Shown piece by piece: positions 32,471-63,907 of a DNA stretch of 64,000 nucleotides. Every line of letters starts with the position of its first letter. The stretch's first letter is position 1. Origin of the DNA: Winogradskyella sp. J14-2 (GTDB taxonomy: Bacteria; Bacteroidota; Bacteroidia; Flavobacteriales; Flavobacteriaceae); assembly GCF_001971725.1 (NCBI RefSeq), contig NZ_CP019388.1, forward strand, positions 1,674,001-1,738,000, in the 5' to 3' direction. A model generated the notes under the pieces. The model had not been told where the DNA came from. It worked only from the letters and a program-made list of their open reading frames with translations, and did no database searches. The translations under genes were made by a program, and so were the position numbers.

Positions 32471-32489
32471 GGTTCAAAATTAGTCAGAA
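32471..32489 (-). promoter_or_regulatory. PUL-associated motif upstream of the Calx-beta lipoprotein
   Basis: GGTTCA-N7-TCAGAA on the plus strand. The minus-strand gene start at 32409 is 62 bases away. Same spacing and orientation as the copies before susC and two other PUL genes. Confidence 0.45.
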
Positions 32490-32519
32490 CTCGTTTAATC
32501 TTTGGTAAAATAGACGCTT

Positions 32520-35183
32520 TCAATGAATAATAACTTTCTTTGTGACTTTTTGGTTCTCATTTTCAAACACGGCTACATATACTCCCGGAGCCTTATTTTC
32601 TAATTGAATCCTTTGCTCACTTAATGACGTTTCTAAATCAAAAACCGAAATTTTCCTAGCTTGTATATCATAGACGCTGAGCTTTGAGCCTTCTGCAATA
32701 TTTCCTGCTACAGTTATTATATTGTTACTTGCAAATAGCCTTACAGCATTGGACACCACTTCTTGGGTGGATAAAACATTGTTGCCAACACGCAAGTAAA
32801 ATCTTCCTATACCATTAATCTCTGTTTGGGTTGTTATCACATAATCCAAATCGTTTAATAGTGTAAACGTATTTTCTTCAACATCCTCTAAATAAATCAT
32901 CACATCTGTTGGCATATTGAAATGAGAAAGCGAAAATATAACTTGAGTACTTTGCTGCGCATTAACACCAAGCGGAATGATTATGTTTGCTATTTCATTT
33001 GGCCCTAAGGTCTGCATTGCCATAGCTTGGTCAGAACTGTTATCTACCAACGCGGTATAAATTGAAAATGAAGGATCTGGCTCACCAAAAAACGAAGCAT
33101 CATAACCAGCATCTAAACTACTTGTGGCATTTTGATTATAATAGATATTTGTTGAACGAACGGTAGTGTTGTCTGAAAGACTCACCGTAAAATTACCGAT
33201 GTGATTATTGGATGTGTTTCTGCCGGCTATAAAATCGTCCGAAGCACCAATAGTGCGCATTGTAGTTGTAAAATCTACTGTTCCACCACCAGATTTTGAA
33301 GCCACAAAAAAGCCTTGGCCTGGCGTAATTAAAGTCTCTGGATTAGCATCTGAAAATGCTTGGTTCCAAATAACCCATCCATCTGATGCGTCACCATCAT
33401 AACCATAAACACCTGAAGTAGCCGCATCAAATTCAGAGTTATTCTCTGTTAAGAAATCTGAAAGACTGATATATGACGCGTATGGGTTGCCTATTAAATT
33501 CCACTGTCCAAAATCACCTGTTTCTGAATTAATAGGCACACTAACATCAGTCGTTACAACTGTTCCGTGAAAGTTTAGTCCCGAAGTTTCTGCCAATGTT
33601 CCGTTGGTTCCCATTCTAAATCCATTGCCTGCACTCATCGATGTTGTAGCATCAAAATCCCAATTGACATAGACGCCAGGATTTGCAGCATTATCAAACG
33701 GCCCAAAAAGTACGGCATCGCTACTTGGGTCTTCTACAAAAAACGAGGCGTTATCGTTATAAAAATCATTGAAAGAGGTAATCTCTACTGGTGAGGCTAT
33801 CAAATCATTTCCTGCCGATGCTTCTACATCGTTTACATAACGTCTAAACCTTATCTCGCCAGTTGAAGTTCCTTCAACGATTAATGAGGAAAACTGGTCG
33901 GAATCTCCTCTAAGAATCAAACTATTGTTTACTGCGGAATCTGTAACCAAATCACCTTCAACAGTTATAGAATTGCCTTTGTTAACGAGAAGTTGCTGTC
34001 CCGAAGTAATAGTCAAGTCATTTGCTGATACATCATTGTTAACCGTTATAGTATGGTTAATTACAACATTATCTGTTGCTCCAGGCACTATTCCACCAAC
34101 CCATGTTGTAAAGTCACTCCAATTACCTGTTTGGGTTGACGCTATTGCATCCGGTGTTGCTGGTGTTAAATCATAATAGTCAACAATAACAGACACATTA
34201 TCAAAATCAAAAGTATCTCCCAAAACAGCACTTGCAGCATTGGTTTTAACTCTTAATGCTACTCTTATTTCGTCAAAATCAGAACTTAAAGACCTGTTTA
34301 GACTGTACGATGTCCAAGCGTTTGTTAGGTTTTCATTGCCGTTGAATTGATTTACCTCTGCACTACCACCTAAAGAATGTGTGATTTGTACACCTACAGT
34401 AACAGCTGTATTGCTAGATTGGGCATCAAAATTTACGGTCACCGCATCGACTTGCTCTAATTCATTAGCAATAAAAGTGAAAAAGGAATTTTGAAGTGTA
34501 TTATTGCCAGTTGCATTTTGGTCAAACGTCAATCGGCCTGCACTTCCACCTCCGTTACCAGTTGTTAAAGAGGCTGAAACATCTGAACCATCAGCAACCC
34601 AAGGAGCAAGTTCACCACCGTTATTTTCAAAATCACCGTTAGCCACAATATTTACCGAAAGTGTGTTTACGATAATAAATTGGTCTATTTTCAGTGTGCC
34701 AGCTAAATCTCCAGCAGCATTTAGCTGTACTCTTAATCCTATCCTATCTAATGTCCCTGCATTATCCGGGTTGGATGGGATCGCAAAATCGATAGTTTGG
34801 AATCCCGCACCATGAGGAATGGTTAGATTGCCTGATTGTTCTGCATTGCCAGCAGAGTTATCTCCGATATCATAATTCACGATTCTAAACGTTTCATGGT
34901 TACCGCTAGTACTGGTCAATAAGTTTTCAACGACTAATCTTACCACTGTATAGTCAGACTCTACTAAACCCAATCCATCTGGTGTTCTAATCTGCTGAAA
35001 CCCTCCTGAATAATCCGTTGGTGTATCTGATGCTTCTAATACTCCACCAGATACCGTAAAACTCGGTATACCACCTTGAGTGAATCCTTCTAAATCTCCA
35101 TCTGTATTAAAATCGTAATAGTAGCTTTGGCCAAAAATAAAAAATGGTACTACCGCAAAAAGTAAAATTGTAAATCTTCGCAT
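32520..35183 (-). CDS. Large T9SS-secreted surface protein with carbohydrate-binding-like domains
   Basis: An 887-residue protein: signal peptide ending IFGQ, a first beta-sandwich (about 19-170, DFNTDGDLEGFTQGG), a CBM4/9-like domain (about 178-340, NGDFENNGGELAPW to FDNVSVIV), a short parallel-beta segment starting GNWSDFTTWVGGIVPG, a long domain of unknown type (about 440-800), and a T9SS type A C-terminal domain (SKLSVYDIQARKIS to KKVIIH). No enzyme motif is evident. It is probably displayed on the cell surface to hold polysaccharide. A copy of the PUL motif overlaps the end of the upstream gene, 48 bases before this start. Confidence 0.78.
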   Translation of the reverse strand: MRRFTILLFAVVPFFIFGQSYYYDFNTDGDLEGFTQGGIPSFTVSGGVLEASDTPTDYSGGFQQIRTPDGLGLVESDYTVVRLVVENLLTSTSGNHETFRIVNYDIGDNSAGNAEQSGNLTIPHGAGFQTIDFAIPSNPDNAGTLDRIGLRVQLNAAGDLAGTLKIDQFIIVNTLSVNIVANGDFENNGGELAPWVADGSDVSASLTTGNGGGSAGRLTFDQNATGNNTLQNSFFTFIANELEQVDAVTVNFDAQSSNTAVTVGVQITHSLGGSAEVNQFNGNENLTNAWTSYSLNRSLSSDFDEIRVALRVKTNAASAVLGDTFDFDNVSVIVDYYDLTPATPDAIASTQTGNWSDFTTWVGGIVPGATDNVVINHTITVNNDVSANDLTITSGQQLLVNKGNSITVEGDLVTDSAVNNSLILRGDSDQFSSLIVEGTSTGEIRFRRYVNDVEASAGNDLIASPVEITSFNDFYNDNASFFVEDPSSDAVLFGPFDNAANPGVYVNWDFDATTSMSAGNGFRMGTNGTLAETSGLNFHGTVVTTDVSVPINSETGDFGQWNLIGNPYASYISLSDFLTENNSEFDAATSGVYGYDGDASDGWVIWNQAFSDANPETLITPGQGFFVASKSGGGTVDFTTTMRTIGASDDFIAGRNTSNNHIGNFTVSLSDNTTVRSTNIYYNQNATSSLDAGYDASFFGEPDPSFSIYTALVDNSSDQAMAMQTLGPNEIANIIIPLGVNAQQSTQVIFSLSHFNMPTDVMIYLEDVEENTFTLLNDLDYVITTQTEINGIGRFYLRVGNNVLSTQEVVSNAVRLFASNNIITVAGNIAEGSKLSVYDIQARKISVFDLETSLSEQRIQLENKAPGVYVAVFENENQKVTKKVIIH

Positions 35184-35231
35184 AACCTGTATAATTGTAT
35201 GTCCAAAAATAACTTAGTTAGTTTTGTTAAT

Positions 35232-35250
35232 GGTTTGCTAATTGTCAGAT
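35232..35250 (-). promoter_or_regulatory. PUL-associated motif upstream of the large T9SS protein
   Basis: GGTTTG-N7-TCAGAT on the plus strand, with 19 of 21 bases around it identical to the copy before susC (35229-35249 against 63886-63906). It overlaps the stop codon of the isomerase-like gene; a minus-strand -7 box TATTTTTG follows at about 35202-35209. Confidence 0.5.
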
Positions 35251-36167
35251 AACGTTTGATTAAAGTATATCGGTAGTTTTTTATAGCAATAACAACTTAA
35301 AAACAAGTCTTTAAGCCCTTCTTCATTATCTCTTAAAATCTTTTCTGGGTCACCTCCTTTTATATGGCCAAGAATACCGATAGGACCTTTGTAACCCAAA
35401 TCCAATAATTGTTGAATCATTTCTTTTTCTAAATCACCTTTGCCTATGGTGATTATTTTTGGACCATCTGTTTTCATACCGTTAAGATTGACACACCATA
35501 AATAAGGTAATAGTTTTTTAATATTTTCGGAATAATCATCTAAATCATTATGTGCATGATGAAAATTAAAGACAACACCTAAATCTTCATTTGGTAAAGC
35601 TTTAATAATCTTTAGCTGATTTTCAGGTTTCCCGTACCATCCGCCATGATTGTAGAGTGCAATTTTACAGCCTAAAGTTTTGGCACGTTTCGACAAATAT
35701 TCAATCATCTTTTTTGCCTCTCGAAGTGATTCTTCTTCTGATAAGTCATTGAAGTAATTCGGTTGAAAACCGACCCAAATCTGGGTTTTTAACCCAACGG
35801 CTTTTAAATTCTTAAAAACAACTTCGCTTTGGGGTTTTAGCTTATCAACTCTGTCTTTTTTAAGATTTATGTAAAGCCAGACTGCTTTTATGTTTATACC
35901 CTTTTCTTTAGCCAATTCCCATTCTTCTTGCATTGTTGGGATGTGCTCTGGGCGGTTACCGTAAGCATATTTATTGTACCCTAAACGCTCTAGCATCTCT
36001 AATCGCTCTTTTGGTGAACGTTTTTTGACATCAAAACCAACAATGGACCAAGGAATTAAGTTGTCTTTACTAAAAAGATTTATTTTACTTGTTTTACAAG
36101 AGATGACAGAAAGTACTGCCAATGCAAATAAACAAGAAGACAAGCGGACCACCAGAAGTTTTAGCAT
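35238..36167 (-). CDS. Lipidated xylose-isomerase-like TIM-barrel protein
   Basis: A 309-residue protein of the sugar phosphate isomerase/epimerase (AP endonuclease 2-like) TIM-barrel family, with metal-site segments IALYNHGGWYG, VVFNFHHAHND and a late Glu. Unusually it has a lipobox (SVISC, Cys24), so it would act in the periplasm or on the outer membrane rather than in the cytoplasm. Family members interconvert or oxidise free sugars; some similar ones work on 3-keto sugars. It overlaps the mutarotase-like gene by one base, so the two are translationally coupled. Substrate unknown. Confidence 0.75.
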   Translation of the reverse strand: MLKLLVVRLSSCLFALAVLSVISCKTSKINLFSKDNLIPWSIVGFDVKKRSPKERLEMLERLGYNKYAYGNRPEHIPTMQEEWELAKEKGINIKAVWLYINLKKDRVDKLKPQSEVVFKNLKAVGLKTQIWVGFQPNYFNDLSEEESLREAKKMIEYLSKRAKTLGCKIALYNHGGWYGKPENQLKIIKALPNEDLGVVFNFHHAHNDLDDYSENIKKLLPYLWCVNLNGMKTDGPKIITIGKGDLEKEMIQQLLDLGYKGPIGILGHIKGGDPEKILRDNEEGLKDLFLSCYCYKKLPIYFNQTLSDN

Positions 36168-37189: not shown

Positions 37190-37201
37190 TTTTAAAACTG
37201 A

Positions 37202-38992
37202 TTATTCCTTAATAAACTTGATGCTGCTTGATTTATTTTTAATAATATAAAGCCCTGAGGCCAAACTGGAAACATCTATTTTTAATGTTCCTTGGGTGTT
37301 TGCATTGATAACCTTCAGGCGTTTTCCTAAAATATTATAAATCTCGAATGTTTCTTCAATATTCAAATTATTAAAGCTTAGGAACAAATCACTTTTAGTA
37401 GGATTAGGATATAATTTTATCTGGCCAGAATCAAATTTTTGGTTAGACAATGTAGCATCAAACTCTAAAGCACCTAAATCTGGATTAGAATCTCTTGTAT
37501 TTCCATTAAAATCATCATTTGGTGCAAAATTGTCATCGGCTATATCTATGGCTGGTGAGTTGGACTGTAAATTAAAATTATGAATCGTTTCTAGTAAATG
37601 GTCGCCAACATTTACAAATAATGGATTGGCTATTGTTGTGTTTTCGTCCACATTGGTAACGTCGTTATCTTGGTTTACCGTTCCGTTGATGCCAAAAATC
37701 ATATTGTCAGTAACCGTTAAGTTTGTTGTTCCGCCAGCCGATAGCGCAAAAGCGTTCCAATCGGTATCAATTACTGATATGTTATTTATCATTTTTATAT
37801 CATTACTACTTTGAGCACTAATACCAATATTATTGCCTCTTTGCTCAATGGTTGGGTTTGTTTCAGGATAAGTAATGGTATTGGTGTAAGAATTCATGTA
37901 ACAGGTATTGTTAATAAAATCAATCCTGTGACCATCGTTGGTATGTACACCACTAAAGCCATTCCAATAGCAGAGGTTGTTGGCTACTAAAATACGGCCG
38001 TTTCCATTTATCCATCCATTAGTATTGTTTCTTTGCAAGGATATACCTTTACCCTCATCAATCCGTGGCGTAATTATGGTTTTACTTGGCGACCAAGAAT
38101 ACTGTTCGTTATAGTTGTGGTGTATTTCATTACGCAATATCTTGATACTGTAATCCGAAGACCCAATAGGCTCTGTTTTGGTAACCACCAGAGCATGCGT
38201 ACCAGAATAGGATTTTACTGAGCATCTGTAAATTTCATTTTCAAGAATATCCACGTACTTACTATCTGACACCCTTAAACCACCGCCAGGTGTGTGGTGT
38301 ATGGTATTGTTAGTTATAATAATATGTTCTGAATTACTCATAAAAAAACCTCGTGTATCTATGTAAGACGGTCTTTTTACGTTTTCATTGCTAATGTCCG
38401 TATAGATATCTGTCTCTTCAACGATATTGTCGTTGTCATTGGTTTCATCTTCGTTTCTAAACCTAATGTCACTAGCCAATGGGTTTGTAACTGTACCTTG
38501 TAAACTGCCATTATCAGTTATGTAAACAAACTGAAGAGCATTCGCTGTAGATAATGGGATTCTTTCTACTTCCCCTTCGATATTAAAGTCTTCAATTCTC
38601 AAATATGAGCTATTGGTTACCCTAAAAATATTGGCTCCGTCACCTCTTAATACAGTATTCTCATCATGGGCTTTAATGGTAATATAATTTCCTGCCGAAC
38701 CGTTTAAATTGTTAATTCTAATTGTGTTTTCAGCATGCCATAAATGCGAATCGTGTTCAACACTGTAAGAATACGATGGGTTATAGCTTGAGTTTGTGTA
38801 TTCACCCACTATTTCTATGGTATCGCCTGGTGATACTTGATTTTCAGCTTCATCAAAAGTTTCAAAAGCTGTTGCTATGCTTGTTCCGTTATTGCTATCA
38901 CTTCCGTTTTGTTGGTCAACGTAATATGTTGTTTGGGCAAAAAATAGATTGCAACCTAAAATGAAAGCTAAGATGTGAATTTTTTTTATCAT
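37202..38992 (-). CDS. T9SS-secreted right-handed beta-helix protein
   Basis: About 596 residues: signal peptide ending LFFAQ, a start typical of DUF1565/PL-like beta-helices (TYYVDQQNGSDSNNGTS), then many short coils such as IITNNTIHH, YVDILENEIYRC, IKILRNEIHHN and ILVANNLCYWNG, a choice-of-anchor-Q tail (SNSPAIDIADDN to DLGALEF) and a T9SS type A domain (IKLYPNPTKSDLFLSF to IKFIKE). The fold is shared by polysaccharide lyases (PL1, PL6) and glycosidases (GH28, GH82), so an enzyme is plausible, but I cannot place it in a family. The frame opens at 39013; the signal peptide fixes the start near 38992. Confidence 0.75.
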   Translation of the reverse strand: MIKKIHILAFILGCNLFFAQTTYYVDQQNGSDSNNGTSIATAFETFDEAENQVSPGDTIEIVGEYTNSSYNPSYSYSVEHDSHLWHAENTIRINNLNGSAGNYITIKAHDENTVLRGDGANIFRVTNSSYLRIEDFNIEGEVERIPLSTANALQFVYITDNGSLQGTVTNPLASDIRFRNEDETNDNDNIVEETDIYTDISNENVKRPSYIDTRGFFMSNSEHIIITNNTIHHTPGGGLRVSDSKYVDILENEIYRCSVKSYSGTHALVVTKTEPIGSSDYSIKILRNEIHHNYNEQYSWSPSKTIITPRIDEGKGISLQRNNTNGWINGNGRILVANNLCYWNGFSGVHTNDGHRIDFINNTCYMNSYTNTITYPETNPTIEQRGNNIGISAQSSNDIKMINNISVIDTDWNAFALSAGGTTNLTVTDNMIFGINGTVNQDNDVTNVDENTTIANPLFVNVGDHLLETIHNFNLQSNSPAIDIADDNFAPNDDFNGNTRDSNPDLGALEFDATLSNQKFDSGQIKLYPNPTKSDLFLSFNNLNIEETFEIYNILGKRLKVINANTQGTLKIDVSSLASGLYIIKNKSSSIKFIKE

Positions 38993-39198
38993 AACAATTG
39001 AATGATTCAACAAAGCTAAATAATGTCATATTATAATAGGTTTAATAATTAACGCTTAAAGAACAAAAACAGTCAGAAAAGCCCTTATATGGTCATCACC
39101 TCAAAATTAATAGACGTTTATTAAACCTTAATAGTTAAATATGCGACCCGTAGAACATGTTAAAAACATAATTTCGAACCATAGCAACCTACTCGATT

Positions 39199-42630: not shown

Positions 42631-42679
42631 TTGAGTTTAATACAGGAAACAAAATTTATTTAAGTTAGTAATTTTGACG

Positions 42680-42712
42680 AGCGCTGTAATGATTACAGCG
42701 CTTTTCCTTTTA
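42680..42712. terminator. Terminator at the meeting point of the G8 gene and the sulfatase operon
   Basis: AGCGCTGTAAT and ATTACAGCGCT are perfect 11-base complements separated by one base (three-base loop in practice), followed by T residues on the plus strand and an A-rich side for the minus strand. It lies between two convergent genes. Confidence 0.82.
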
Positions 42713-53415: not shown

Positions 53416-53434
53416 GGTTTAGTTTAATTCAGAA
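53416..53434 (-). promoter_or_regulatory. PUL-associated motif before the second sulfatase operon
   Basis: GGTTTA-N7-TCAGAA on the plus strand, exactly the spacing seen before susC. A small inverted repeat CATGTC/GACATG (53392-53407) lies between it and the gene start. Confidence 0.45.
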
Positions 53435-53442
53435 ATTATGCC

Positions 53443-53470
53443 AAAAAAAGCGATAATAGAATATCGCTTT
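53443..53470 (-). terminator. Rho-independent terminator inside the PUL gene run
   Basis: Read on the minus strand, AAAGCGATA and TATCGCTTT form a 9-bp stem followed by a T run (A run at 53443-53449 on plus). It lies just after the sulfatase ending at 53478. Confidence 0.8.
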
Positions 53471-53477
53471 AAAAGTG

Positions 53478-55076
53478 TTACTGCGTTAAATGCGATTTGA
53501 GTTTTGCTTTCAAATCTTTTACCAAATCCTTATAATTTGAATCCTTAATTAAATTTCTTGTTTCTAAAGGATCTTTTTCATAATCGTACAGCTCCCTACC
53601 TACAATATTATCCTCTTTGTAAGGCATGTAACTCCTGTAATTGCTATCGTGCCATTCCGTATATCGATAACGTACGGTTCTTATACCATATCCCATTCGC
53701 GGACCTCTTCTATATTGGTGATAAGCATAATCCATACGAACTGTCGTTGAAGAATCACTATCTAATAGTGGCACTAATGACTTGCCATCGGTTTGTGAGC
53801 TTTGTGGCACATTAGCCAATTCAAAAACTGTAGGAAATAAATCCACAAGGTTTACTGGATGATGTGATTTTTGATTTTTCTCCACACCAGGGCCAGCAAA
53901 CATAAAAGGAATACGTGTGGCTTGCTCAAAGTTTGAATGTTTGCACCACTCGGTATGATCTCCTAAATGAAAACCATGATCTCCCCAAAGTACAATTACT
54001 GTATCGTCTAAAATCTTACGCTTTTCTAATTCATCTAATAGCTTACCTATTTGTGCATCTATATAAGAAACACATGCCATATATCCGTGGATCAACTCAC
54101 GTTGCTTAGCTTCTGGTAAAACATCTCCCTGACGTAATTTATTATCTATATCTGAAAAGGCACGTAATTCTCCAAAAGAATGAAAGGCAAATTTTGGTGT
54201 GCCTTTTGATAATTCTTGGAATTCAGCCAATTCAATTTCATTTCTATCGTACAGATCCCAGTATTTTTTCGGCGCTACAAATGGTAAATGTGGCTTTTGA
54301 TATCCAACGCCCAAAAACCAAGGTTTTCCTGTTTTTTCTAAATTTTCAAGTTGTTTTAAAGCTGTTTGAGTATATAATCCATCTTGATAAGCTGTATCGC
54401 TAACATCTGCACTTTCGGTTGAAGGTTTTAAACGCTTAAACACATAGGTTCTGATTTTCCCATTCTTAGTGATGCCTTTCTCTCTTGCCTCAGTTTCTAG
54501 TGCAGCCATTTGACGCTTTGTCTCAGGAGCTTGATAATAAGAAAACGCAGCTTCACCAGCGACTGGATCAAAATTATCTGGTAATTGATGTGGCATAGAC
54601 CAACTCTTACCATCATGTCCAGGTGCCGATGAGCCTTTATGATATATCTTGCCTACGGCTGTAGTTGCGTAACCTTGTGTAATGAGATACTCTGGCATTG
54701 ATATTAAATCTGAAGATTCTCTAAAATCGGTATGTAAATCCCAAACTTTTGTTCTATCTGGGTTAGCTCCTGTCATGACACTGGCACGTGAAGGACCACA
54801 CACTGCATATTGAACGTGAGCATTGGTAAATGTCATTCCCATTTTCGCCAAACGGTCAAAATTAGGTGTGTGCATTTGTGTTTCACCATAATTTGATAAT
54901 AATGGCTTTAAATCATCTACTGCTATGAAAAGAATGTTTTTCTTTTCACCATTCGGAATGGTTTCCGTTGTATTTGAAGTAGCTGAGTTGACATTTCTAG
55001 TAGTTGATCTCTGGGCATTGCATGCCATTAAAAATATAACAATTACTATTGATGCTATGGATAGTATTTTTTTCAT
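53478..55076 (-). CDS. Sulfatase (S1 family, iduronate-2-sulfatase-like), lipoprotein
   Basis: A 532-residue sulfatase with lipobox (LMAC, Cys19). It has the iduronate-2-sulfatase-like layout: AVDDLKPLLSNYGE, the formylglycine site Cys93-G-P-S-R in AVCGPSRASVMTGANPD, TKVWDLHTDFR, VGYQKPHLPFVAPKKYWDLY and LWGDHGFHLGDHTEWCKH. Members of this subgroup act on 2-O- or other sulfates of uronic acids, galactose or fucose, so the name does not fix the substrate. It follows the next sulfatase in the operon by 4 bases and is ended by a terminator. Confidence 0.92.
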   Translation of the reverse strand: MKKILSIASIVIVIFLMACNAQRSTTRNVNSATSNTTETIPNGEKKNILFIAVDDLKPLLSNYGETQMHTPNFDRLAKMGMTFTNAHVQYAVCGPSRASVMTGANPDRTKVWDLHTDFRESSDLISMPEYLITQGYATTAVGKIYHKGSSAPGHDGKSWSMPHQLPDNFDPVAGEAAFSYYQAPETKRQMAALETEAREKGITKNGKIRTYVFKRLKPSTESADVSDTAYQDGLYTQTALKQLENLEKTGKPWFLGVGYQKPHLPFVAPKKYWDLYDRNEIELAEFQELSKGTPKFAFHSFGELRAFSDIDNKLRQGDVLPEAKQRELIHGYMACVSYIDAQIGKLLDELEKRKILDDTVIVLWGDHGFHLGDHTEWCKHSNFEQATRIPFMFAGPGVEKNQKSHHPVNLVDLFPTVFELANVPQSSQTDGKSLVPLLDSDSSTTVRMDYAYHQYRRGPRMGYGIRTVRYRYTEWHDSNYRSYMPYKEDNIVGRELYDYEKDPLETRNLIKDSNYKDLVKDLKAKLKSHLTQ

Positions 55077-55080
55077 ATTG

Positions 55081-56721
55081 TTAATCAGATTTACCTGTTA
55101 GGACATCTTGTACAGAAGTTTCGTCATCTTTTTTGTCAACTATCGAGCCAAAATCAGTGTCGGTAATTTTCCTGAAATCTGCCAAGGATTTATCATTGCC
55201 AGATTCTTTCATTAATTCCTTTAGTTTTGACTTTAATTGTGAAAGCACGATTGCGTACTGTGGGTCATTGATAACATTATTCATTTGGTTAGGATCTTTC
55301 TCTAGATCATATAATTCCCAAACATCAATATTGTAATAGAAATGTGCCAAAGTATATTTCTGGGTTCTAATACCATAATGTGGCTGTACATGATGCCAAT
55401 ACGGGAATTCGTAATAATGGTAATACATGGCCTGCTCCCAATCTTTAGGTGTTTGCCCTTCTAAGATTGATTTAAAACTCTCACCTTGCATTTTTTGATC
55501 TGTATCAATATTGGCCAAATCCAATAGGGTTGGTGCAAAGTCAATATTTGTAATGATATCATCGTTAACGCTTTCCGCTTTAACCACTTTAGGATACCTT
55601 ACCATAAACGGCATACGTATAGATTCTTCATAGATAAACCTTTTATCAAAGAATCCGTGATCTCCCAAATAAAATCCCTGATCTGATGTTAATACAATAA
55701 TAGTATTGTCTGTTAAATTATTTTCATCCAAATATTTCAAAACACGACCAATATTATCGTCAACAGATTTCACACAAGCTAAATAATCCTTGATATATGT
55801 TTGGTATCTCCACTTTCTACCTTCTTCTGCGTTTAAGCCTTCTGGTTGCACTACTTCTCCTGGTTTTGCGCCATAAAATGCCCACTTAATTTTTTCTTTC
55901 CCTTTTAGGTTGGCTGGTTCTTCAAATTTCATATCTCTTCGAGAGAAATATTCCATTGTCATCTCAGTATTGCCCGCAGTTAGCTCTCTGCCTTTATAAT
56001 TGTCATTAAATGTTGATGGGTATGGCATTTCAATATTTTCCCAAAGTTGTTCGTACTTCTTATCAGGTTGCCATGGTCTGTGTGGTGCTTTAAACTGCAG
56101 AACCATTAAAAATGGATCGTCTTGTTTGCGCTCATTTTGCAACCAATCCATCGCAAAATCAGTACTCAAATTGGTTGAATAGCCTTTTACCTTTGTGTCC
56201 TTTCCATTAATGTTGTAAACCGGGTTCCAATAATGACCTTGTTGACCTGCAGAATTATGGTATTTAAAGACATCAAATCCTTGAGGTTCGGAACCTAAAT
56301 GCCATTTTCCGAAAAGGGAGGTTTGATAACCATTTTTTTGAAATTCTTGAGGGAATGTCCATTGAGTTTCATCAAATTTCCCTCCACTTTCATTTTTGTA
56401 GTAGCCATTAAGATTACTATAGTTACCTGTTAAAATGGCCGCACGTGAAGGTCCACAAATAGCATTGGTGCATAAAACATCTTGAAAGAGCATGCCTTCT
56501 TTGGCTATCCTATCAATATTTGGTGTTGGTGCTAAATCACTATATATACCACCATAAGCACTTATTGCCTGTGTGGTTAAATCATCTGCCATAATGTAGA
56601 TGATGTTTGGTTTTTGCACCTCTACTTGCTCTACAGTATTATAAGCTTGTTCCTTATTGGTTTCTTTACATGCAACTAAAAGGAATGTGCAAGCAAAACC
56701 TAATTTTAATGTCTTTAACAT
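55081..56721 (-). CDS. Sulfatase (S1 family), lipoprotein
   Basis: A 546-residue sulfatase with lipobox (LVAC, Cys18). Features are MADDLTTQAISAYGG, the formylglycine site Cys89-G-P-S-R (NAICGPSRAAILTGNY), FGKWHLGSEPQGFD, LQFKAPHRPWQPDKKYEQLW and TSDQGFYLGDHGFFDKR. The layout is that of the N-acetylglucosamine-6-sulfatase-like/S1_11-type group, though the true target here is unknown. It starts one base after GH3 and precedes another sulfatase by 4 bases. Confidence 0.92.
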   Translation of the reverse strand: MLKTLKLGFACTFLLVACKETNKEQAYNTVEQVEVQKPNIIYIMADDLTTQAISAYGGIYSDLAPTPNIDRIAKEGMLFQDVLCTNAICGPSRAAILTGNYSNLNGYYKNESGGKFDETQWTFPQEFQKNGYQTSLFGKWHLGSEPQGFDVFKYHNSAGQQGHYWNPVYNINGKDTKVKGYSTNLSTDFAMDWLQNERKQDDPFLMVLQFKAPHRPWQPDKKYEQLWENIEMPYPSTFNDNYKGRELTAGNTEMTMEYFSRRDMKFEEPANLKGKEKIKWAFYGAKPGEVVQPEGLNAEEGRKWRYQTYIKDYLACVKSVDDNIGRVLKYLDENNLTDNTIIVLTSDQGFYLGDHGFFDKRFIYEESIRMPFMVRYPKVVKAESVNDDIITNIDFAPTLLDLANIDTDQKMQGESFKSILEGQTPKDWEQAMYYHYYEFPYWHHVQPHYGIRTQKYTLAHFYYNIDVWELYDLEKDPNQMNNVINDPQYAIVLSQLKSKLKELMKESGNDKSLADFRKITDTDFGSIVDKKDDETSVQDVLTGKSD

Positions 56722-56722
56722 A

Positions 56723-59104
56723 TTATTTTACTTTTTCAATGGTAAAACCATCGTTGACAGAAATGGTTGTTATCTTTAAATCTTTATCGGCAGAGGAATT
56801 CCCTGTCATAATGGTAAAATCCCCAGGTTCTACTACAAAGTTGAAATCCTTATCATACATGGCTAAACTTTCTGCGGTAATTGGAATACTCACTGTTTTA
56901 GATTCTCCTGCTTTTACAAATACACGTTTATAACCCTTTAGCTCCTTAACTGGTCTGGTGTAAGAACTTCGGTTATCTCTTATGTACATCTGTACTACTT
57001 CCTCTCCATCAACCTCACTTGTGTTTTTAACAATTACAGATACCGTAATCGTATCATCTTTTCCATCAAATTCTGTTTTGGAAACGCTTGGTTCAGAAAA
57101 TTTAAATTTTGAATAACTTAAACCATAACCAAAAGGATGTAATGGTACTTTCTTTTCGGTATTATACTTATGAATGTAAGCGGTCGGTTTATGGTTATAT
57201 ATCATTTGTAACTGACCAACACTTCTTGGTACAGTTAATGGTAACTTACCGCTTGGATTAACTTCTCCCAGCAAGATTTCAGCAACGGCTTGTCCGCCAA
57301 ATGCACCTGGTTCCCAAGCATTGACAACCGCTTTGGCACGTTGCTCTAGCCAAGGTTCGGCAATAGGACTACCACTTACGTAAACGACTATTACAGGTTT
57401 ATTAAGCTCAAATAGTTTGTTGGCCAATTTCATTTGATTGCCTGATAGTTTTAATGTAGCTCTATCGATATTTTCGCCTGTGGTTTTATTTTTCCAATCG
57501 TGACGGTATGAGTTTTCTCCTAGAACCAAAACGATTATATCTGAACCTGTGGCTTTTTGTTTTGCTACAGCTATATTTTCATCAGTTATCCATTTTGAAC
57601 GTTGCCCACAATCATAGTATTCCGTCGCGTAACCATATTTTTCAGCCATATTATCCAAACCTTCTTTTATGGTTACATAGTTATCTTCTGGTTGTGGTGA
57701 AGACCAATCGCCAAGGGTTGTCATATTGTCTGCATTTGGACCAGTAATGAAAATTTTCTTTCCTGACACATTTTTAAGCGGAAGGAAACCATTGTTCTTT
57801 TGTAGTACAACACCCTTTCTAGCTTGTTCTAAGGCTGTTTGCTGGTGTTCTATAGTGAAAATTTCGGATTTTACACTCTCTAAATCAATGAATGGATTTT
57901 CAAAAAGTCCTAATCTAAATTTAGCTTCTAAAATCTTGTAAACAGCATCATTTACCCGATCTTCACTTAACTTACCTTCATTTACCAATTCTACTACGTA
58001 ATCCTGAAAATATGGTCCATGCATATTCATGTCCATTCCAGCACCTATTGAGAATTGTACAGATTCCTTAAAGTCTCTAGCAACATGATGCCATTTTGCG
58101 ATACGCGAAATATCATTCCAGTCACTCACATAAAATCCTTTAAAGCCCCAACGGTTACGCATTAAATCGGTCATCATGAACTCGTCCATATGTCCAGGCA
58201 TACCATTTACTTCATTATGAGCAGCCATAATAGAAAACACATTTGCTTCTTGAACCGCTCTACGATAAGGTGGTAAGAACATTTCAAAAAGTGTTCTTTT
58301 TGACACATCAGTCGGTGAAGCATTTAGTCCATTAACTGATTGACTACCTGCAATTAAATGCTTTGCACAAGCTATAACTTTATCTTCTCCTGTAAAATCG
58401 TTGCCTTGAAGCCCTTTGATAGCGGCAACACCCATATTACCAACAAGGAAGGGGTCTTCTCCATAGGTTTCGCCTGTTCTCCCCCAACGCGGATCTCTTA
58501 ATACATCAATATTTGGTGTAAATGTCCATTGGGTTCCTGTAGCCCTCATTTCTTTGGCAGTTTGCTGACTTGCTTTTACCATTAAAGAATCATCAAATGT
58601 TGCTGCCTGTGTAATTGGTGTAGGATATACTGTTGCTCCACCTTTGTAGTAGGCATTACCATGAATAGCATCTATACCAATAAGTAATGGGATTTTTAAA
58701 GGTGATTGTTGTGCCATTTCTTGAAGTTCATTAGCTTCTTCAGCGGTTAGTACATGCAGAAATGAACCTATTTTACCTTCTCTTGTCAATTTTGCGATAT
58801 CTGTGGTTTTAAAACCAGGATAGAAACCTTGTGCATCGTTGACGTCTAAATCTTCTTCTGATAAATCCCCAAGTGCCTTGCGCATGTGCTCCAAGCCAAC
58901 GTACTGGCTCATCTGTGCTGCTTTATCCTCAAGGGTCATCCGAGACATTAGGTCTTCTATTCTATCTTCTAACGAGGATGAAGCATCTAAATAAAGTGGA
59001 TTTTCCTCGTTTGAGGTATTCTTTTTTTGTTTGTCATTGCACGACAGCATAACCGTCACTGCGATAATTGTAATAGACAAATATTTAAATAGGTTCTTGA
59101 TCAT
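56723..59104 (-). CDS. GH3-family beta-glycosidase, lipoprotein
   Basis: A 793-residue enzyme with lipobox (VMLSC, Cys22), an N-terminal (beta/alpha)8 domain, an alpha/beta sandwich and a C-terminal fibronectin-III-like domain (about 690-780), the BglX arrangement. KHLIAG (about 248-253) and the nucleophile Asp328 in FYVSDWNDI are visible. GH3 enzymes remove terminal beta-linked glucose, xylose or similar units. Combined with GH10 it may be a beta-xylosidase or beta-glucosidase acting on oligosaccharides in the periplasm. It is the third gene of the susCD operon, 16 bases after susD. Confidence 0.92.
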   Translation of the reverse strand: MIKNLFKYLSITIIAVTVMLSCNDKQKKNTSNEENPLYLDASSSLEDRIEDLMSRMTLEDKAAQMSQYVGLEHMRKALGDLSEEDLDVNDAQGFYPGFKTTDIAKLTREGKIGSFLHVLTAEEANELQEMAQQSPLKIPLLIGIDAIHGNAYYKGGATVYPTPITQAATFDDSLMVKASQQTAKEMRATGTQWTFTPNIDVLRDPRWGRTGETYGEDPFLVGNMGVAAIKGLQGNDFTGEDKVIACAKHLIAGSQSVNGLNASPTDVSKRTLFEMFLPPYRRAVQEANVFSIMAAHNEVNGMPGHMDEFMMTDLMRNRWGFKGFYVSDWNDISRIAKWHHVARDFKESVQFSIGAGMDMNMHGPYFQDYVVELVNEGKLSEDRVNDAVYKILEAKFRLGLFENPFIDLESVKSEIFTIEHQQTALEQARKGVVLQKNNGFLPLKNVSGKKIFITGPNADNMTTLGDWSSPQPEDNYVTIKEGLDNMAEKYGYATEYYDCGQRSKWITDENIAVAKQKATGSDIIVLVLGENSYRHDWKNKTTGENIDRATLKLSGNQMKLANKLFELNKPVIVVYVSGSPIAEPWLEQRAKAVVNAWEPGAFGGQAVAEILLGEVNPSGKLPLTVPRSVGQLQMIYNHKPTAYIHKYNTEKKVPLHPFGYGLSYSKFKFSEPSVSKTEFDGKDDTITVSVIVKNTSEVDGEEVVQMYIRDNRSSYTRPVKELKGYKRVFVKAGESKTVSIPITAESLAMYDKDFNFVVEPGDFTIMTGNSSADKDLKITTISVNDGFTIEKVK

Positions 59105-59120
59105 TGCTTGCTTAAAAAAA

Positions 59121-60647
59121 TTAGTAGCCCGGATTTTGATCTGCTTGAGATATCTCGGTGTTATTTGATAGTTCTGTTGAAGGTATTGGCAACAACATGT
59201 TCTTTACCGATACAGGATAAATGTAATCCTTGTTGCCAAGGTTAGGGAAGTTGTTATGTGTCTCGATAATTTCTTCCAAGAAATATTCGTAACCTCTTCT
59301 TCTGGTATCAAACCAGTCGTGGTTTTCACCTAAAAGTTCGTACTGACGCTCTTTCATTATACGCATACGAAACATATCCTGGCTCATACCGCTCCAATCT
59401 GCTGGTTCTACTGCTTGCGTACCATCTGCTTGTGTGCGTGCTCTAGCCAATACCTCGTTTACATATTGGTATGCGTCGGCTGGACCGTTAAGCTCGTTTT
59501 CAATTTCTGCGAGCATTAACAATAAGTCTGCATATCGTAATTTTAGCATGTTTCGGCTTGTGGTCGTGCCATTGAAATTTGGGTCCAAATATTTGTTTAT
59601 TGCGGTAAAACCATCATTACCGTTAATTTGGGTTGGGTAAAGATTTACCGTGTTCCCATTTACTTTAACGTAGGAATCATAAGTGAAAGTGGCATCAATC
59701 CTTGGGTCTCCTGGATATTGATTGAAGTGTTGGTCGAAGACTTCTTTATTTGGTCTTACTCTTCCGAATGTTGGGTAATCGAAAAGTTGTTTTAAGGTGT
59801 AACTTCTGATTACGTCGGAATTTCTGACTGCACCGTTTGACCCATACTGAATTTCGAAAATGGCTTCTGAGGTGTTCTCATTGGTAATATCAAACAAATC
59901 TTCAAATACAGGTACCAAACTGTACCGTCCGTATACCTGAATAGCTTCGTCGTAAGCGGCTTGCCACATAGACATATCGTTGTTCTCCCCTGCCAAGGTC
60001 ATATATACTTTAGCTAAAAACATATTGGCAGCGGTTTTTACTGGGCGGTCTGAAATGTACTCCCCTGGATTTGGAAGCATTTCCTTAGCTTTTTCAAAAT
60101 CTGAAATCACTAACTCGTAAACCTCTTCTTTTGAGCTTCTAGGTGTATCTAAATCGTTGATGTTGGCCGGTAAGGTTTTGATGGGTACACCACCGAAATA
60201 GCGTACCAAATCAAAATAAGTCGCAGCACGAATAAAATAGGCTTGCCCTAATGTAGTCTCACGATTTGCAAGCTGGGAATCTTCCATATTGAAAATAATG
60301 GTGTTCGCTACATTAATGGTTGCATACATTTGTGGCCACATACGCGTCAACCAAGTATTGTTTGGCAAGGTATTTAAGCTCGTAGCGTCTTCACTAGCAC
60401 CTTGATTTGAAAAGAACCTTCCAGAAACAGGGTTGATAAAGGTATGTATTGAAGACCCATGATATCCAGGGTCTGAGTAACTTTGGTAAAGACCGTTTAC
60501 CGCAGCCTCAACGCCATCTTCGGTCGAAAATACTTGCTCTTCTTCAAAGAACGTCTCGATATCTTCTTCTAAGTAATCGTCACATCCTGTAACTACAAAG
60601 AATGAAGTGATTAATCCAATAATTGCTATATATTTTTTCATTTCCAT
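59121..60647 (-). CDS. SusD/RagB-family nutrient-binding lipoprotein
   Basis: A 508-residue outer-membrane lipoprotein (lipobox VTGC, about residue 22) with the acidic surface signal DDYLEEDIE, a TPR-rich body with LANRETTLGQAYFIRAATYF and ADLLLMLAEIENE, and the usual C-terminus (MKERQYELLGENHDWFDTRR, then YPVSVKNMLLPIPSTELSNN and NPGY). SusD proteins bind glycans and act as a lid on SusC. Starts at 60647 and 60641 are both possible. It lies 4-10 bases after susC. Confidence 0.95.
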   Translation of the reverse strand: MEMKKYIAIIGLITSFFVVTGCDDYLEEDIETFFEEEQVFSTEDGVEAAVNGLYQSYSDPGYHGSSIHTFINPVSGRFFSNQGASEDATSLNTLPNNTWLTRMWPQMYATINVANTIIFNMEDSQLANRETTLGQAYFIRAATYFDLVRYFGGVPIKTLPANINDLDTPRSSKEEVYELVISDFEKAKEMLPNPGEYISDRPVKTAANMFLAKVYMTLAGENNDMSMWQAAYDEAIQVYGRYSLVPVFEDLFDITNENTSEAIFEIQYGSNGAVRNSDVIRSYTLKQLFDYPTFGRVRPNKEVFDQHFNQYPGDPRIDATFTYDSYVKVNGNTVNLYPTQINGNDGFTAINKYLDPNFNGTTTSRNMLKLRYADLLLMLAEIENELNGPADAYQYVNEVLARARTQADGTQAVEPADWSGMSQDMFRMRIMKERQYELLGENHDWFDTRRRGYEYFLEEIIETHNNFPNLGNKDYIYPVSVKNMLLPIPSTELSNNTEISQADQNPGY

Positions 60648-60651
60648 TGAT

Positions 60652-63600
60652 TTAGAATGTTAGATTTAATGCTATAGAGTAGGTTTTCTGGTTAGGAAAC
60701 GAATTCCAATCTACACCGACTCTTCCTGGGTCGAAGGTAAAACTGGCACCTTCTGGGTCATAGCCGCTGTAATTTGTAAACAATAAGAGATTTTGACCGG
60801 ATAAGGATATGTAAGCATTATCAAAAATTGATTTTTCTGAAAAAGGAATGTTATAACCTAAGGTGACGTTTGCCAATCTTAAAAAACTTCCATCTTCCAC
60901 GATTCGGTCTGTAAATCCGGTTTCATCAGCAAGGTCGTAACCGACTCTTGGGAAAGTACCATCTGGATTATCTGGCGTCCAGGCATTAAAGTATGCTTCG
61001 CTTCTCACATTAGTAGAAGCATTATCTGCATAAGCCTCGCGCAACAAATTACCATTAGCGATATCATTACCATAAACGCCATTAAACAAGGCGCTTAATG
61101 ACCAATTTTTGTAGGTAAGGCTAGTACCAAAGCCATAATTAAAATCCGGGTTTGGATTACCGATTATAGTTAAATCGTTATTGTCTATGACACCATCATC
61201 ATTTTGATCAACCAAATACACATCACCTAATTGCGCTGGTGTACCATTAAAACTTGGTGCATTATCAACATCCTCTTGGTTACTTACTATACCATTAGTG
61301 GCATAACCATAAAAGAGTGCTGGTTCTTCTCCTTCAATGAAAATGTTGGCTTCTGTTTTGAAGAAATTTCCACCTGAAATCTGTCTACCTAAATACGCAC
61401 TGTACGTCTGTGTGCCGAATTGTGCTGGCGGAAATCCTAGGTCACCGACTTCATTTCTGTTAAAGGCAATGTTTCCGTAAACATTCCACTGAAAATCATC
61501 ATTGCTTACTATATCTGCATTGATAGCAAATTCAATACCTTTATTAATTAGTTCACCTCGATTGACAAAAGTCGCTTCAAAACCATTTGAAGGCGCAATT
61601 TGTGCATTCAATAATAAATCGTATATATTTTTGTAGTACACATCAACTGACCCAGTGACTCTATCGTTGGCAAAACCAAAATCCAAACCAGCGTTGTACT
61701 GGCTTGTTGTTTCCCATTTTAGAGTGGGATTTCTCAGGTTTTGCGGCACAATAGACGTTAATGGATTACCAGCTTCATCAGAATAAGGTGATTGTGTAAG
61801 GTTGAATCTTGTTATGGTACTGTAAGGGTCAATAGCCTGATTACCTGTTAGTCCCCAACCTAACCTCAACTTTGCCTGTGATATAAGTTTAGAATCTTTA
61901 AGAAAATTCTCTTCTTTCATTTTCCATGCAAATGCAAATGCCGGAAAATAGCCCCAACGATTATTGCCTCTAAATTTAGAACTACCATCTGCTCTAAAAG
62001 TTGCCGTGAACAAATATTTATCGAACATGGTATAATTTATCCTTCCTAAATAAGATAATAAGGACTCTTCTTCGGTGTAATAAAAGACAGGTTGCTGATT
62101 TTGCCCGGTTGTTATGCCATTCGCCCTTAAATCTTGCAATGGGAAATCGGTTGCTGATGCTGTTTTAAATGTAGATTGCCTCTGGTCGATAATAAACCCA
62201 ACTGTTCCATTGATGCGATGGTTACGGTTAAACCTGTGCTTAAACATTAAGGTGTTATCAATATTATATCTAAAACGCTCAAGATTACTTAGACCAGCCT
62301 CACCATTTACTAATGCACCTCTACGCAGAGCTGTACCAAACCATATTTGTCTTTCTTTCACTCTGTAATCTGCACCTACAGTTACTCTATAAGTAAAAGC
62401 CTTAGACAATTTATAATCTAGTTTTAAGGCACCCAGTAATCTTGATTCTTTGGATTCATCATCATAGTCAGATACCCATGCTCTTGGACCATCTAAACTA
62501 ATATCAAACTCATCGCCTTCAAAATTATCAACCTGCCCAATTATAGGTGCACCAGAAACTAATTGTCTAATAATACTATTGCTTGTGCCACCCAGATTTT
62601 CAGTGCCTTTAGATGCAAAGTTTTGAGTGTGCTGTGCCGCTATCTTAGTACTTAATTCTAGTTTCCCAGATAAATTGGTGTTGAATTTGGCATTGAAGTC
62701 CGTACTCTTGGCAATTGCCCTTGGCACAACACCTTCATTCTGTAGAAATCCTCCTGAAATATAATAGTCTGAGTTTTCACTACCGCCTGAAACCGCCAAT
62801 CTGTACTTATTGGTCACAGCCATTTTGAATATATCTTCACTCCAATCTACTCCCTCTATTCGCTCAATGGTATTGGCATTGTCTAACATAAATTGCTCAT
62901 CGTTTTGGAAGTTGGCAATACTGCCATCTGGATAAACAAAGTAGCTTGGATTAAATCCTTGATTAGCTCTTACATCATTTTGATAATCGACATAATCCCT
63001 TGTGCCTAAAACATCTATTTCATTAGTTACGAAGCCTAACCTCGTCGATGTATTAAATGTAAACTTTGCCTCACCTTTTTGACCTTTTTTTGTGGTAATA
63101 ATTATAACTCCGTTAGCACCACGAGAACCATAAATAGCTGTAGCTGAAGCGTCTTTGAGTACCTCAATGCTCTCAATATCGCGAGGGCTTAAACCTGTTA
63201 TACCGCCTTGTGGCGACAGATAGCTGTTACCGCTTGATAGTGGGTCTAGTGTATCCTCCGTAGCGGAATCTACAATGATACCATCAACAACGTAAAGCGG
63301 TTGGGTATTACCTGTAAGACTATTTAAACCTCTAATCCTGATGCTATTTGCTGCCCCTGGTTCAAATGCACTTTGTACCAAAACCCCTGCGACTCTACCC
63401 TGTAACAGTTGCTCAACATTGTTAGACTGCGCTACCAAATCCTCTTTCTTTTTTACTGAAGAAACCGCACCTGTTAAGTCTTTTTTATTGACCTCACCGT
63501 AACCTATGATGACCACTTCATCCAGGGCTTCTTGGTTTTCTTTAAGGACAATGGTTAAATTGGTCTGAGAAGTAACGGTAATCTCTTGGGTTTCGTAACC

Positions 63601-63816
63601 AAGATAGCTCACGACCAAAACAGCTGGCGTCTCATTCAGAGTTAATGTAAACTCACCATCTATATTGGTAACCCCTCCTTTGATCGTGCCTTTTACGATA
63701 ACCGAAGCTCCTGGTAGGGGAAATTTAGTTTCGTCCATGACCTTCCCTTTAATTTCGGTCTGCGCAAAAATCACCATTGGAATTATTAAAAGTGCTGTAC
63801 AAAAAAGTTTTTTCAT
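60652..63816 (-). CDS. SusC/RagA-family TonB-dependent outer-membrane glycan transporter
   Basis: A 1054-residue receptor: signal peptide ending IFAQ, a CarboxypepD_reg-like domain (about 22-100), the TonB-box-like ALDEVVIIGYGEV, a plug with QGRVAGVLV, IRGLNSLTG, LYVVDGIIV and IEVLKDASATAIYGSRGANGV, and a barrel ending in SIALNLTF. Its N-terminal segment places it firmly in SusC rather than siderophore receptors. It imports oligosaccharides with SusD and TonB/ExbBD. It is the first gene of the PUL operon, preceded by a PUL motif 72 bases upstream. Confidence 0.96.
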   Translation of the reverse strand: MKKLFCTALLIIPMVIFAQTEIKGKVMDETKFPLPGASVIVKGTIKGGVTNIDGEFTLTLNETPAVLVVSYLGYETQEITVTSQTNLTIVLKENQEALDEVVIIGYGEVNKKDLTGAVSSVKKKEDLVAQSNNVEQLLQGRVAGVLVQSAFEPGAANSIRIRGLNSLTGNTQPLYVVDGIIVDSATEDTLDPLSSGNSYLSPQGGITGLSPRDIESIEVLKDASATAIYGSRGANGVIIITTKKGQKGEAKFTFNTSTRLGFVTNEIDVLGTRDYVDYQNDVRANQGFNPSYFVYPDGSIANFQNDEQFMLDNANTIERIEGVDWSEDIFKMAVTNKYRLAVSGGSENSDYYISGGFLQNEGVVPRAIAKSTDFNAKFNTNLSGKLELSTKIAAQHTQNFASKGTENLGGTSNSIIRQLVSGAPIIGQVDNFEGDEFDISLDGPRAWVSDYDDESKESRLLGALKLDYKLSKAFTYRVTVGADYRVKERQIWFGTALRRGALVNGEAGLSNLERFRYNIDNTLMFKHRFNRNHRINGTVGFIIDQRQSTFKTASATDFPLQDLRANGITTGQNQQPVFYYTEEESLLSYLGRINYTMFDKYLFTATFRADGSSKFRGNNRWGYFPAFAFAWKMKEENFLKDSKLISQAKLRLGWGLTGNQAIDPYSTITRFNLTQSPYSDEAGNPLTSIVPQNLRNPTLKWETTSQYNAGLDFGFANDRVTGSVDVYYKNIYDLLLNAQIAPSNGFEATFVNRGELINKGIEFAINADIVSNDDFQWNVYGNIAFNRNEVGDLGFPPAQFGTQTYSAYLGRQISGGNFFKTEANIFIEGEEPALFYGYATNGIVSNQEDVDNAPSFNGTPAQLGDVYLVDQNDDGVIDNNDLTIIGNPNPDFNYGFGTSLTYKNWSLSALFNGVYGNDIANGNLLREAYADNASTNVRSEAYFNAWTPDNPDGTFPRVGYDLADETGFTDRIVEDGSFLRLANVTLGYNIPFSEKSIFDNAYISLSGQNLLLFTNYSGYDPEGASFTFDPGRVGVDWNSFPNQKTYSIALNLTF

Positions 63817-63888
63817 TGATTGAAATAATTAGTTTCTGCTAAACTACTCCAACAGGTTTATTCTTACGTCTAAAAATATATCACAAAT

Positions 63889-63907
63889 GGTTTATTAATT
63901 GTCAGAA
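63889..63907 (-). promoter_or_regulatory. PUL-associated motif upstream of susC
   Basis: GGTTTA-N7-TCAGAA on the plus strand. The copy at 35232-35250 matches it in 19 of 21 bases. An AT-rich stretch with TATTTTTA on the minus strand (about 63871-63878) may hold the -7 box. Confidence 0.5.

What the first reader, a model, noticed from the sequence alone, without database searches (positions are those of the whole stretch)
32471..63907. A shared motif, GGTTTA-N7-TCAGAA, marks four PUL promoters across 31 kb
The plus strand shows GGTTTA-N7-TCAGAA at 63889 (before susC), 53416 (before the second sulfatase operon), GGTTTG-N7-TCAGAT at 35232 (before the large T9SS protein) and GGTTCA-N7-TCAGAA at 32471 (before the Calx-beta lipoprotein). 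All four are in the same orientation, with identical 7-base spacing, 48-72 bases before a minus-strand start codon. Two copies (63886-63906 and 35229-35249) share 19 of 21 bases even though one overlaps the end of a coding region. None of the core genes I inspected upstream of 24 kb has it. This suggests one regulator controls both the enzyme operon and the surface-protein block, defining the true extent of the PUL. I know of no published description of this motif.
Basis: partly seen in the sequence, partly recalled or inferred. Interest (0 to 1): 0.75.

Follow-up and report, generated by a model that had tools for sequence, protein, structure and literature searches.

The report
Sugar-sensor's paired binding sites across PUL
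A short DNA word seen before several sugar-degradation genes is one half of a paired landing site that very probably belongs to the sugar-sensing regulator encoded next door, so that it would switch on transporters, enzymes and surface proteins together; this is a known type of switch, here traced through related bacteria.

Summary
The motif is real, but is half of the element. Next to susC lies an AraC-type hybrid two-component regulator (HTCS). Behind its orthologues, mostly before susC, stands a tandem repeat, TTTTGACRATTANYAAACC + TTTTGTGATGNTTTTTNAAACC (period 21-22 bp), followed about 20 bp later by a -7 box. This is the architecture predicted for Bacteroides HTCS operators. A model built without the own genus ranks susC, the 887-aa T9SS gene, the divergent beta-helix gene (39199) and the lipoprotein gene 1, 2, 3 and 5 in the 3.35-Mb genome (E 6.7e-6, 9.4e-6, 0.016, 0.074); the 39013 operon has a weaker fifth site. 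In leave-one-genome-out scans, 46 of 46 hits precede a same-strand ORF start. The fourth (53416, sulfatase operon) is rejected. Two sites were missed (39109+, 39038-). One regulator for enzymes and surface proteins is thus well supported by comparative genomics; binding and induction are untested. New member of a known kind.

The parts
63961..64000 (-). 3' end of the AraC-type hybrid two-component system gene (HTCS, 1301 aa), which continues beyond the window (L012:1-3866)
   Evidence: Reg_prop, Y_Y_Y, HisKA, HATPase, receiver and AraC HTH domains; full frame read
63867..63907 (-).
   Evidence: Both arms conserved in G048; orthologous promoters; whole-genome rank 1, E 6.7e-6 with R2
63839..63846 (-). 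-7 box TAGTTTAG of the susC promoter (one mismatch to TANNTTTG), 20 bp after the second arm
   Evidence: Coordinates checked; T at columns 24, 25, 26 after the operator in 89, 98 and 80% of 44 sites
53478..63816 (-). susC, susD, GH3, two sulfatases: main operon
   Evidence: Pfam; susC-susD behind the HTCS in 14 of 15 loci of other genera fetched at length, all five genes in this order in 12 of 15
35231..35271 (-).
   Evidence: PWM 26.9, composite 32.8, whole-genome rank 2, E 9.4e-6
35204..35211 (-). -7 box TATTTTTG (exact TANNTTTG)
   Evidence: Sequence, at the offset found; R2 match 35204-35266
32470..32510 (-). Box AATTTTAC at 32443-32450, one base nearer than usual
   Evidence: Composite 22.5, whole-genome rank 5, E 0.074 with R2, not listed with R1; lipoprotein homologues preceded by the operator in 6 of 6 genomes of other genera where one was found
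39109..39149 (+).
   Evidence: PWM 21.9, whole-genome rank 3, E 0.016 with R2, rank 5, E 0.154 with R1; hits at the same place in G331 (27.0) and G048 (10.1)
39038..39078 (-).
   Evidence: PWM 15.9, composite 17.9, both below the highest random draw; divergent partner site also in G331 (20.9) and G048 (16.1); not found in this register in the whole-genome scans
53416..53434 (-).
   Evidence: Scores -11.5 and -18.3, -15.7 and -32.4; overlaps a different conserved block, 53426-53445
32520..35183 (-). 887-aa T9SS-secreted protein, proposed regulon member
   Evidence: Por_Secre_tail
30670..32409 (-). 579-aa lipoprotein (N-terminus with LACE), proposed regulon member
   Evidence: N-terminus; no Pfam family at E 0.001

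Best explanation
The motif is one arm of the operator of the HTCS encoded next to susC. Inferred mechanism: the periplasmic propeller senses an oligosaccharide released from a sulfated (perhaps xylose- or fucose-containing) glycan; the HTCS, through its AraC-type HTH domains, occupies two half-sites (TTNTGACRAT-N4-AAACC) in tandem on one DNA face, 21-22 bp apart, just upstream of the -33 region, and activates sigma-A RNA polymerase at a -7 box fixed about 20 bp further on. It would thereby switch on together the susCD/GH3/sulfatase operon, the 887-aa T9SS gene, the beta-helix gene at 39199, the T9SS603/epimerase/isomerase operon and the lipoprotein operon. Shown by sequence: the repeat, its conservation, its promoter position, and co-occurrence with the HTCS. 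Inferred: which protein binds, the direction of control (activation), and the ligand.
For: HTCS directly upstream of susC. Same-genus G048: the susC promoter keeps both arms. Intergenic stretches behind 24 HTCS genes (own, G048, 22 loci, two of them duplicates): best match to the two-arm consensus 24-35 of 38 positions, shuffled stretches mean 20.2, maximum 24. Matrix from other genera: the own top five hits in 101 kb are the five sites; with R2, genome-wide ranks 1, 2, 3 and 5. Leave-one-genome-out: 46 of 46 hits at or above 18 have a same-strand ORF start within 250 bp (random placement 8.6%), 0 hits for the reversed matrix in 713 kb, 19 of 20 susC promoters recovered. -7 box at fixed spacing although not used for alignment (TANNTT at one of two neighbouring offsets in 27 of 44). 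Family scan: all 35 matches with E up to 1.2e-4 fall in the 16 HTCS-bearing genomes of 395. In G199 the HTCS (C7) and the PUL (C2) are on different contigs, yet operators stand by both. Published HTCS operators are direct repeats averaging 21 bp (PMC3878776, passages).
Against: No binding or expression data. 15 of the 16 HTCS-bearing genomes have a site in training (13 of them their susC site), so the family separation is partly circular for positives; its margin is thin (weakest best match of an HTCS genome 4.6e-5, best of another genome 1.9e-4), E-values are rough, and 317 of 395 genomes have some match at E up to 0.1. The starting consensus was made by eye with the own susC site in view. 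32470 and 39038 are weak alone: genome-wide E 0.074 and none; random draws reached 16.8 and 21.6. One untrained hit of an HTCS genome (G448:C1:2637083, E 7.5e-4) has no PUL homologue beside it. The downstream sulfatase operon (53362-42736) has no operator here, and none is listed at the sulfE-sulfD junction of relatives. The G448 susC promoter scores only 14.2.
Confidence: 0.87

Rival explanations
1. The operator belongs to another DNA-binding protein (a stand-alone AraC regulator or a paralogous HTCS) that merely travels with the PUL.
For: No binding experiment. Many HTCS-like candidates exist per genome (first-look counts of 13 to 131 in the rows shown).
Against: Operator and this one HTCS co-occur (with the circularity stated above); in G199 an operator stands right behind the HTCS gene although the PUL is on another contig; in G138 an operator also stands before the sulfatase gene next to the HTCS; a direct repeat of about 21 bp is the HTCS form.
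Confidence: 0.09
2. The motif is a part of the core promoter (sigma-factor element) common to the genus, without a specific regulator.
For: It lies at a fixed distance upstream of a TANNTTTR-like box, and the flavobacterial sigma-A -7 box is TAnnTTTG (PMC9723704, passages).
Against: Only two matches with E below 0.05 in the whole own genome with R1, both here; a core promoter element would be expected very many times.
Confidence: 0.02
3. The four matches are chance in an AT-rich genome.
For: 11 genome-wide matches against 7 for the reversed pattern; one of the four (53416) is indeed not supported.
Against: Cross-genus models find three of the four without having been trained on them; the susC site is conserved in G048.
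Confidence: 0.02

Closest known systems
HTCS operators of Bacteroides thetaiotaomicron (16 predicted HTCS motifs, PMC3878776; 12 passages seen)
   Same: Tandem direct repeat of two conserved sites with about 21 bp period, in promoters of susC operons next to an HTCS gene; one regulator may control several operons
   Different: Host is a Flavobacteriaceae species; the Bacteroides logos are figures I could not see, so half-site sequences were not compared; fixed distance to the -7 box shown here; proposed targets include T9SS surface proteins and a beta-helix protein
Sigma-A promoters of flavobacteria (TAnnTTTG -7 box; PMC9723704, two passages seen)
   Same: The box at fixed spacing downstream of the operator fits this consensus
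   Different: A -33 element was not looked for; the operator's downstream arm occupies the adjoining region
CgrA (AraC regulator of the carrageenan regulon of Zobellia, PMC5698469; 12 of 16 passages seen)
   Same: AraC-type regulator of a sulfated-galactan regulon in a marine flavobacterium
   Different: Stand-alone AraC protein, not an HTCS; no DNA site is given in the passages that I saw

Membership tests
AraC-type HTCS operator/regulon | Regulator with periplasmic sensor, histidine kinase, receiver and AraC-type HTH in one chain | tested here: met
   Pfam: Reg_prop, Y_Y_Y, HisKA, HATPase_c, Response_reg, HTH_18/HTH_AraC; periplasmic placement of the sensor is inferred
AraC-type HTCS operator/regulon | HTCS gene co-localised with susC/susD | tested here: met
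   144 bp between HTCS stop (63961) and susC start (63816); susC is the next homologue behind the HTCS in 18 of 22 loci examined (two duplicates), not in L064, L066, L148, L152
AraC-type HTCS operator/regulon | Direct repeat of two conserved sites, about 21 bp apart | tested here: met
   TGA to TGA 21 bp, AAACC to AAACC 21-22 bp
AraC-type HTCS operator/regulon | Site conserved before orthologous target genes | tested here: met
   19 of 20 susC promoters in leave-one-out; lipoprotein 6 of 6 in other genera; in G048 the lipoprotein promoter keeps only a partial site
AraC-type HTCS operator/regulon | Binding of the HTCS to the site | not testable with these tools
   Needs EMSA or DAP-seq
AraC-type HTCS operator/regulon | Induction of target operons by the cognate glycan | not testable with these tools
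   Needs RNA-seq or proteomics
Flavobacterial sigma-A promoter | TAnnTTTG -7 box downstream of the operator | tested here: met
   T at columns 24-26 in 89, 98 and 80% of 44 sites, TANNTT at offset 20 or 21 in 27 of 44; exact at 35204-35211 and 39011-39018, one mismatch at susC and at 39169-39176; the lipoprotein box AATTTTAC departs more

The most novel reading that the evidence does not exclude
A single HTCS-operator pair has been kept across Flavobacteriaceae and Saprospiraceae, so well that a model from other genera predicts the regulon of an unseen genome, including unlinked targets (G199, G443, G378) and surface proteins without known family (lipoprotein, 116-aa protein, C1q-like proteins in G259). 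These would then be dedicated capture proteins for one sulfated glycan, and operator scanning would define PUL membership better than gene neighbourhood.
Probability: 0.5. Interest if true: 0.6.

Novelty: new member of a known kind. Interest (0 to 1): 0.47.

Why it matters
PUL borders are usually drawn by gene neighbourhood. Here the regulator's own DNA sites draw them: they join T9SS, beta-helix and lipoprotein genes of unknown function to the sulfatase/SusCD operon and predict unlinked members in relatives. Six searches of the open library aimed at HTCS or PUL promoter motifs listed no paper that I could recognise, from titles, abstract starts or the passages opened, as describing an HTCS operator in Flavobacteriia; closed-licence papers and RegPrecise are not held. 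So this gives a directly testable regulon in a group where regulation is little known.

Tried and rejected
The TTCTGA half there is part of another block, TTTGGCAYARTTTSTGAATT, shared by own, G048, G331 and G261 after a hairpin; its TAAACC half is not kept in G048. The hairpin before it (AGCGATA...TATCGCT plus a T-run, 53449-53468) looks like a terminator to the eye, but the terminator scan did not list it. Single 19-bp-arm scan: weak by itself (random 101-kb maxima average 15.0 and reach 21.4; 63889 scores 23.7, 35232 22.5, 32471 10.7, 53416 2.5), which is why two-arm and composite models were used. First reading of every site as upstream arm: rejected for 35232 and 32471, which fit better as downstream arms. 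Footprint of the lipoprotein promoter in G048: alignment poor, only a partial site. Footprint of 35232 in G048: the contig starts inside the gene. A look for the published S/CHIP motif in the receiver domain by regular expression was not informative. Substrate by PDB similarity: GH10 closest to beta-xylanases, one sulfatase to GlcNAc-6-sulfatases, another to an arylsulfatase and iduronate-2-sulfatases, the beta-helix protein only by its sorting tail: substrate left open. Matches in genomes without the HTCS (G232, G340) were looked at: no homologue of the window's PUL genes beside them.

Rows dropped: L063 and L064 (same loci as G261 and G199) and L156/G448 susC (misaligned) from the first matrix. 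The own genome was held out of all matrices; G048 was in the first matrix but in none of the later ones. The 44 model sites, from 20 genomes or loci, are those scoring 24 or more; the 49 at 15 or more trained the matrix and include a few hits without a listed PUL gene behind them. Sites were chosen by score over all relatives together before the leave-one-out test.
Full report
OBSERVATION. GGTTNR-N7-TCAGAW matches exactly four places in the window, 32471, 35232, 53416 and 63889, all on the plus strand, i.e. TTCTGA-N7-TAAACC in the direction of the minus-strand genes (0.12 expected). Distances to the start codons are 61, 48, 53 and 72 bases. Genome-wide there are 11 matches in 3.35 Mb, with 7 for the reversed control; 6 of the 7 outside the window lie inside ORFs of at least 100 aa. 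Because the pattern was made from the four sites, I looked for independent evidence.

THE NEIGHBOUR. The window ends 40 bases inside the next gene. Beyond it, the same frame encodes a 1301-aa protein (extended coordinates 63961-67866) with two-component-regulator propeller, Y_Y_Y, HisKA, HATPase, receiver and AraC-type HTH domains: a hybrid two-component system (HTCS). A sulfatase-maturating FGE-type gene is divergent from it. Between HTCS stop and susC start lie 144 bp.

FOOTPRINT. G048, a same-genus assembly, matches the stretch from the second sulfatase operon through susC to the HTCS at 74% DNA identity over 15.9 kb. HTCS orthologues (46-63% identity) occur in 15 of 396 other family genomes sampled, and named loci come from Flavobacteriaceae and Saprospiraceae or their kin (L061-L066, L091). 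The stretch behind the HTCS, which is the susC promoter in 18 of 22 loci, shows the two arms TTTTGACRATTANYAAACC and TTTTGTGATGNTTTTTNAAACC, period 21-22 bp: 24-35 of 38 consensus positions in 24 sequences, against a mean of 20.2 and a maximum of 24 in shuffles; the weakest is L156 (G448). Bacteroides HTCS motifs were predicted to be direct repeats with two conserved sites on average 21 bp apart (PMC3878776, passages).

REGULON IN RELATIVES. I fetched 20-40 kb from 15 orthologous loci and mapped homologues of the window's genes: susC-susD stand behind the HTCS in 14 of 15, susC-susD-GH3-sulfatase-sulfatase in this order in 12 of 15; in G261, G138, G245, G221, G272 and G259 the PUL also includes the lipoprotein. 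The operator stands before susC, before the lipoprotein (6 of 6 of these genomes), before the 116-aa gene where no lipoprotein was found (G331, G200, G182, G228; G199, G443, G378), and before some T9SS genes and the beta-helix gene. With each genome left out of training, 46 hits of score 18 or more were found in 713 kb, and 46 of 46 have a same-strand ORF start within 250 bp (8.6% for random places); the reversed matrix gave 0 hits; 19 of 20 susC promoters were recovered, the miss being G448 at 14.2.

PROMOTER. Without aligning on it, columns 24, 25 and 26 after the operator are T in 89, 98 and 80% of the 44 sites, with a weaker A at 21-22 (66, 68%) and A or G at 27 (89%); TANNTT stands at offset 20 or 21 in 27 of 44. 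This fits the TAnnTTTG box of flavobacterial sigma-A (PMC9723704, passages). The box lies about 20 bp after the downstream arm, so the regulator would sit against the -33 region; activation is inferred from this geometry.

BACK TO THE WINDOW. A matrix made from other genera, scanned over 101 kb (window plus 37 kb), has as its top five 63867- (31.7), 35231- (26.9), 39109+ (21.9), 32470- (15.9) and 39038- (15.9), the next being 11.7; random sequence of the same length reached 9.6 on average and 16.8 at most in 30 draws. With the -7 box added the same five lead (36.3, 32.8, 21.1, 22.5, 17.9 in the same order), the next being 12.8; 40 random draws gave a mean maximum of 7.7, highest 21.6, second 14.4. 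A sequence model of the 69-bp element ranks susC (6.7e-6), the 887-aa T9SS gene (9.4e-6), the beta-helix gene (0.016) and the lipoprotein (0.074) as 1, 2, 3 and 5 of the whole genome; rank 4 (0.056) lies elsewhere (150 of 6094 first-look candidates were scored). With the 41-bp operator alone, susC and the T9SS gene are ranks 1 and 2 (1.3e-5, 5.1e-4), the beta-helix site is rank 5 (0.154) and 32470 is not listed. 39038- rests on the two matrices, on an exact TAGCTTTG at the right offset, and on the same divergent pair in G331 and G048.

THE FOURTH SITE. 53416 scores far below zero in either register. It overlaps a block (53426-53445) that own, G048, G331 and G261 share for another reason. In G182, G228 and G443 the gap between these sulfatase genes is under 55 bp, so the second sulfatase operon may be reached by read-through; this is open.

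LINK TO THE HTCS. In a scan of 395 family genomes with the 41-bp model, all 35 matches with E up to 1.2e-4 lie in the 16 genomes that have the HTCS, and all 16 have one; the best match in any other genome is 1.9e-4 (G232), and 317 genomes have some match at E up to 0.1. 15 of the 16 gave sites to the model, so the independent part is the absence elsewhere plus six untrained sites among the 35 (G000, three on G199:C2, G443:C6, G259:C6). Five of these stand before PUL or surface-protein homologues (and the susC site here); the sixth, G199:C2:1414888, lies at the 5' edge of a sulfatase-like ORF as called. A weaker untrained hit, G448:C1:2637083 (7.5e-4), has no such homologue near it. In G199 the HTCS is on another contig than the PUL, with operators at both.

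SUBSTRATE. GH10 resembles beta-xylanases; sulfatases, an alpha-L-fucosidase and GH3 are present. Marine PULs predicted for sulfated fucose- or xylose-rich glycans have been described with such families (PMC6298971, passages). I leave the glycan open.

VERDICT. A conserved HTCS-type operator; the kind is known, the member and its reach into surface proteins are new as far as the six motif-directed library searches show. Not shown: protein binding, direction of control, inducer.

Noticed in passing
window 53426-53445 (minus strand), G048, G331, G261: After a hairpin with T-run between two sulfatase genes a block TTTGGCAYARTTTSTGAATT is conserved in four genomes although the hairpins differ; it may be a promoter of another kind.
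   Followed up: partly
window 25325-25365 (minus strand): Sixth-best operator-like hit in 101 kb (11.7), between a small ORF and the plus-strand C1q/BclA-like gene 25432-27159 but pointing away from it; G048 has a similar inverted hit (L208, about 10760) on the other side of that small ORF. In G259 two C1q-like homologues have correctly oriented operators.
   Followed up: partly
window about 25200-25290 (plus strand) and L208 (minus strand): A small ORF ending in ...SSPPDPGGNPFD, with a signal-like N-terminus in G048, lies upstream of the C1q-like gene in both genomes (read by eye).
   Followed up: no
L012:3931-5049: An FGE-type sulfatase-maturation gene is divergent from the HTCS; no hit of the scans falls in the 64-bp gap between them, so autoregulation through this site is not indicated.
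   Followed up: partly
L012:13717-15024: A gene with HTTM and vitamin-K-dependent gamma-carboxylase lumenal domains lies beyond the PUL.
   Followed up: no
window 37202-39013: The listed TTG start is probably not the true one; an ATG at 38992 (MIKKIHIL...) fits the operator and -7 box better.
   Followed up: no
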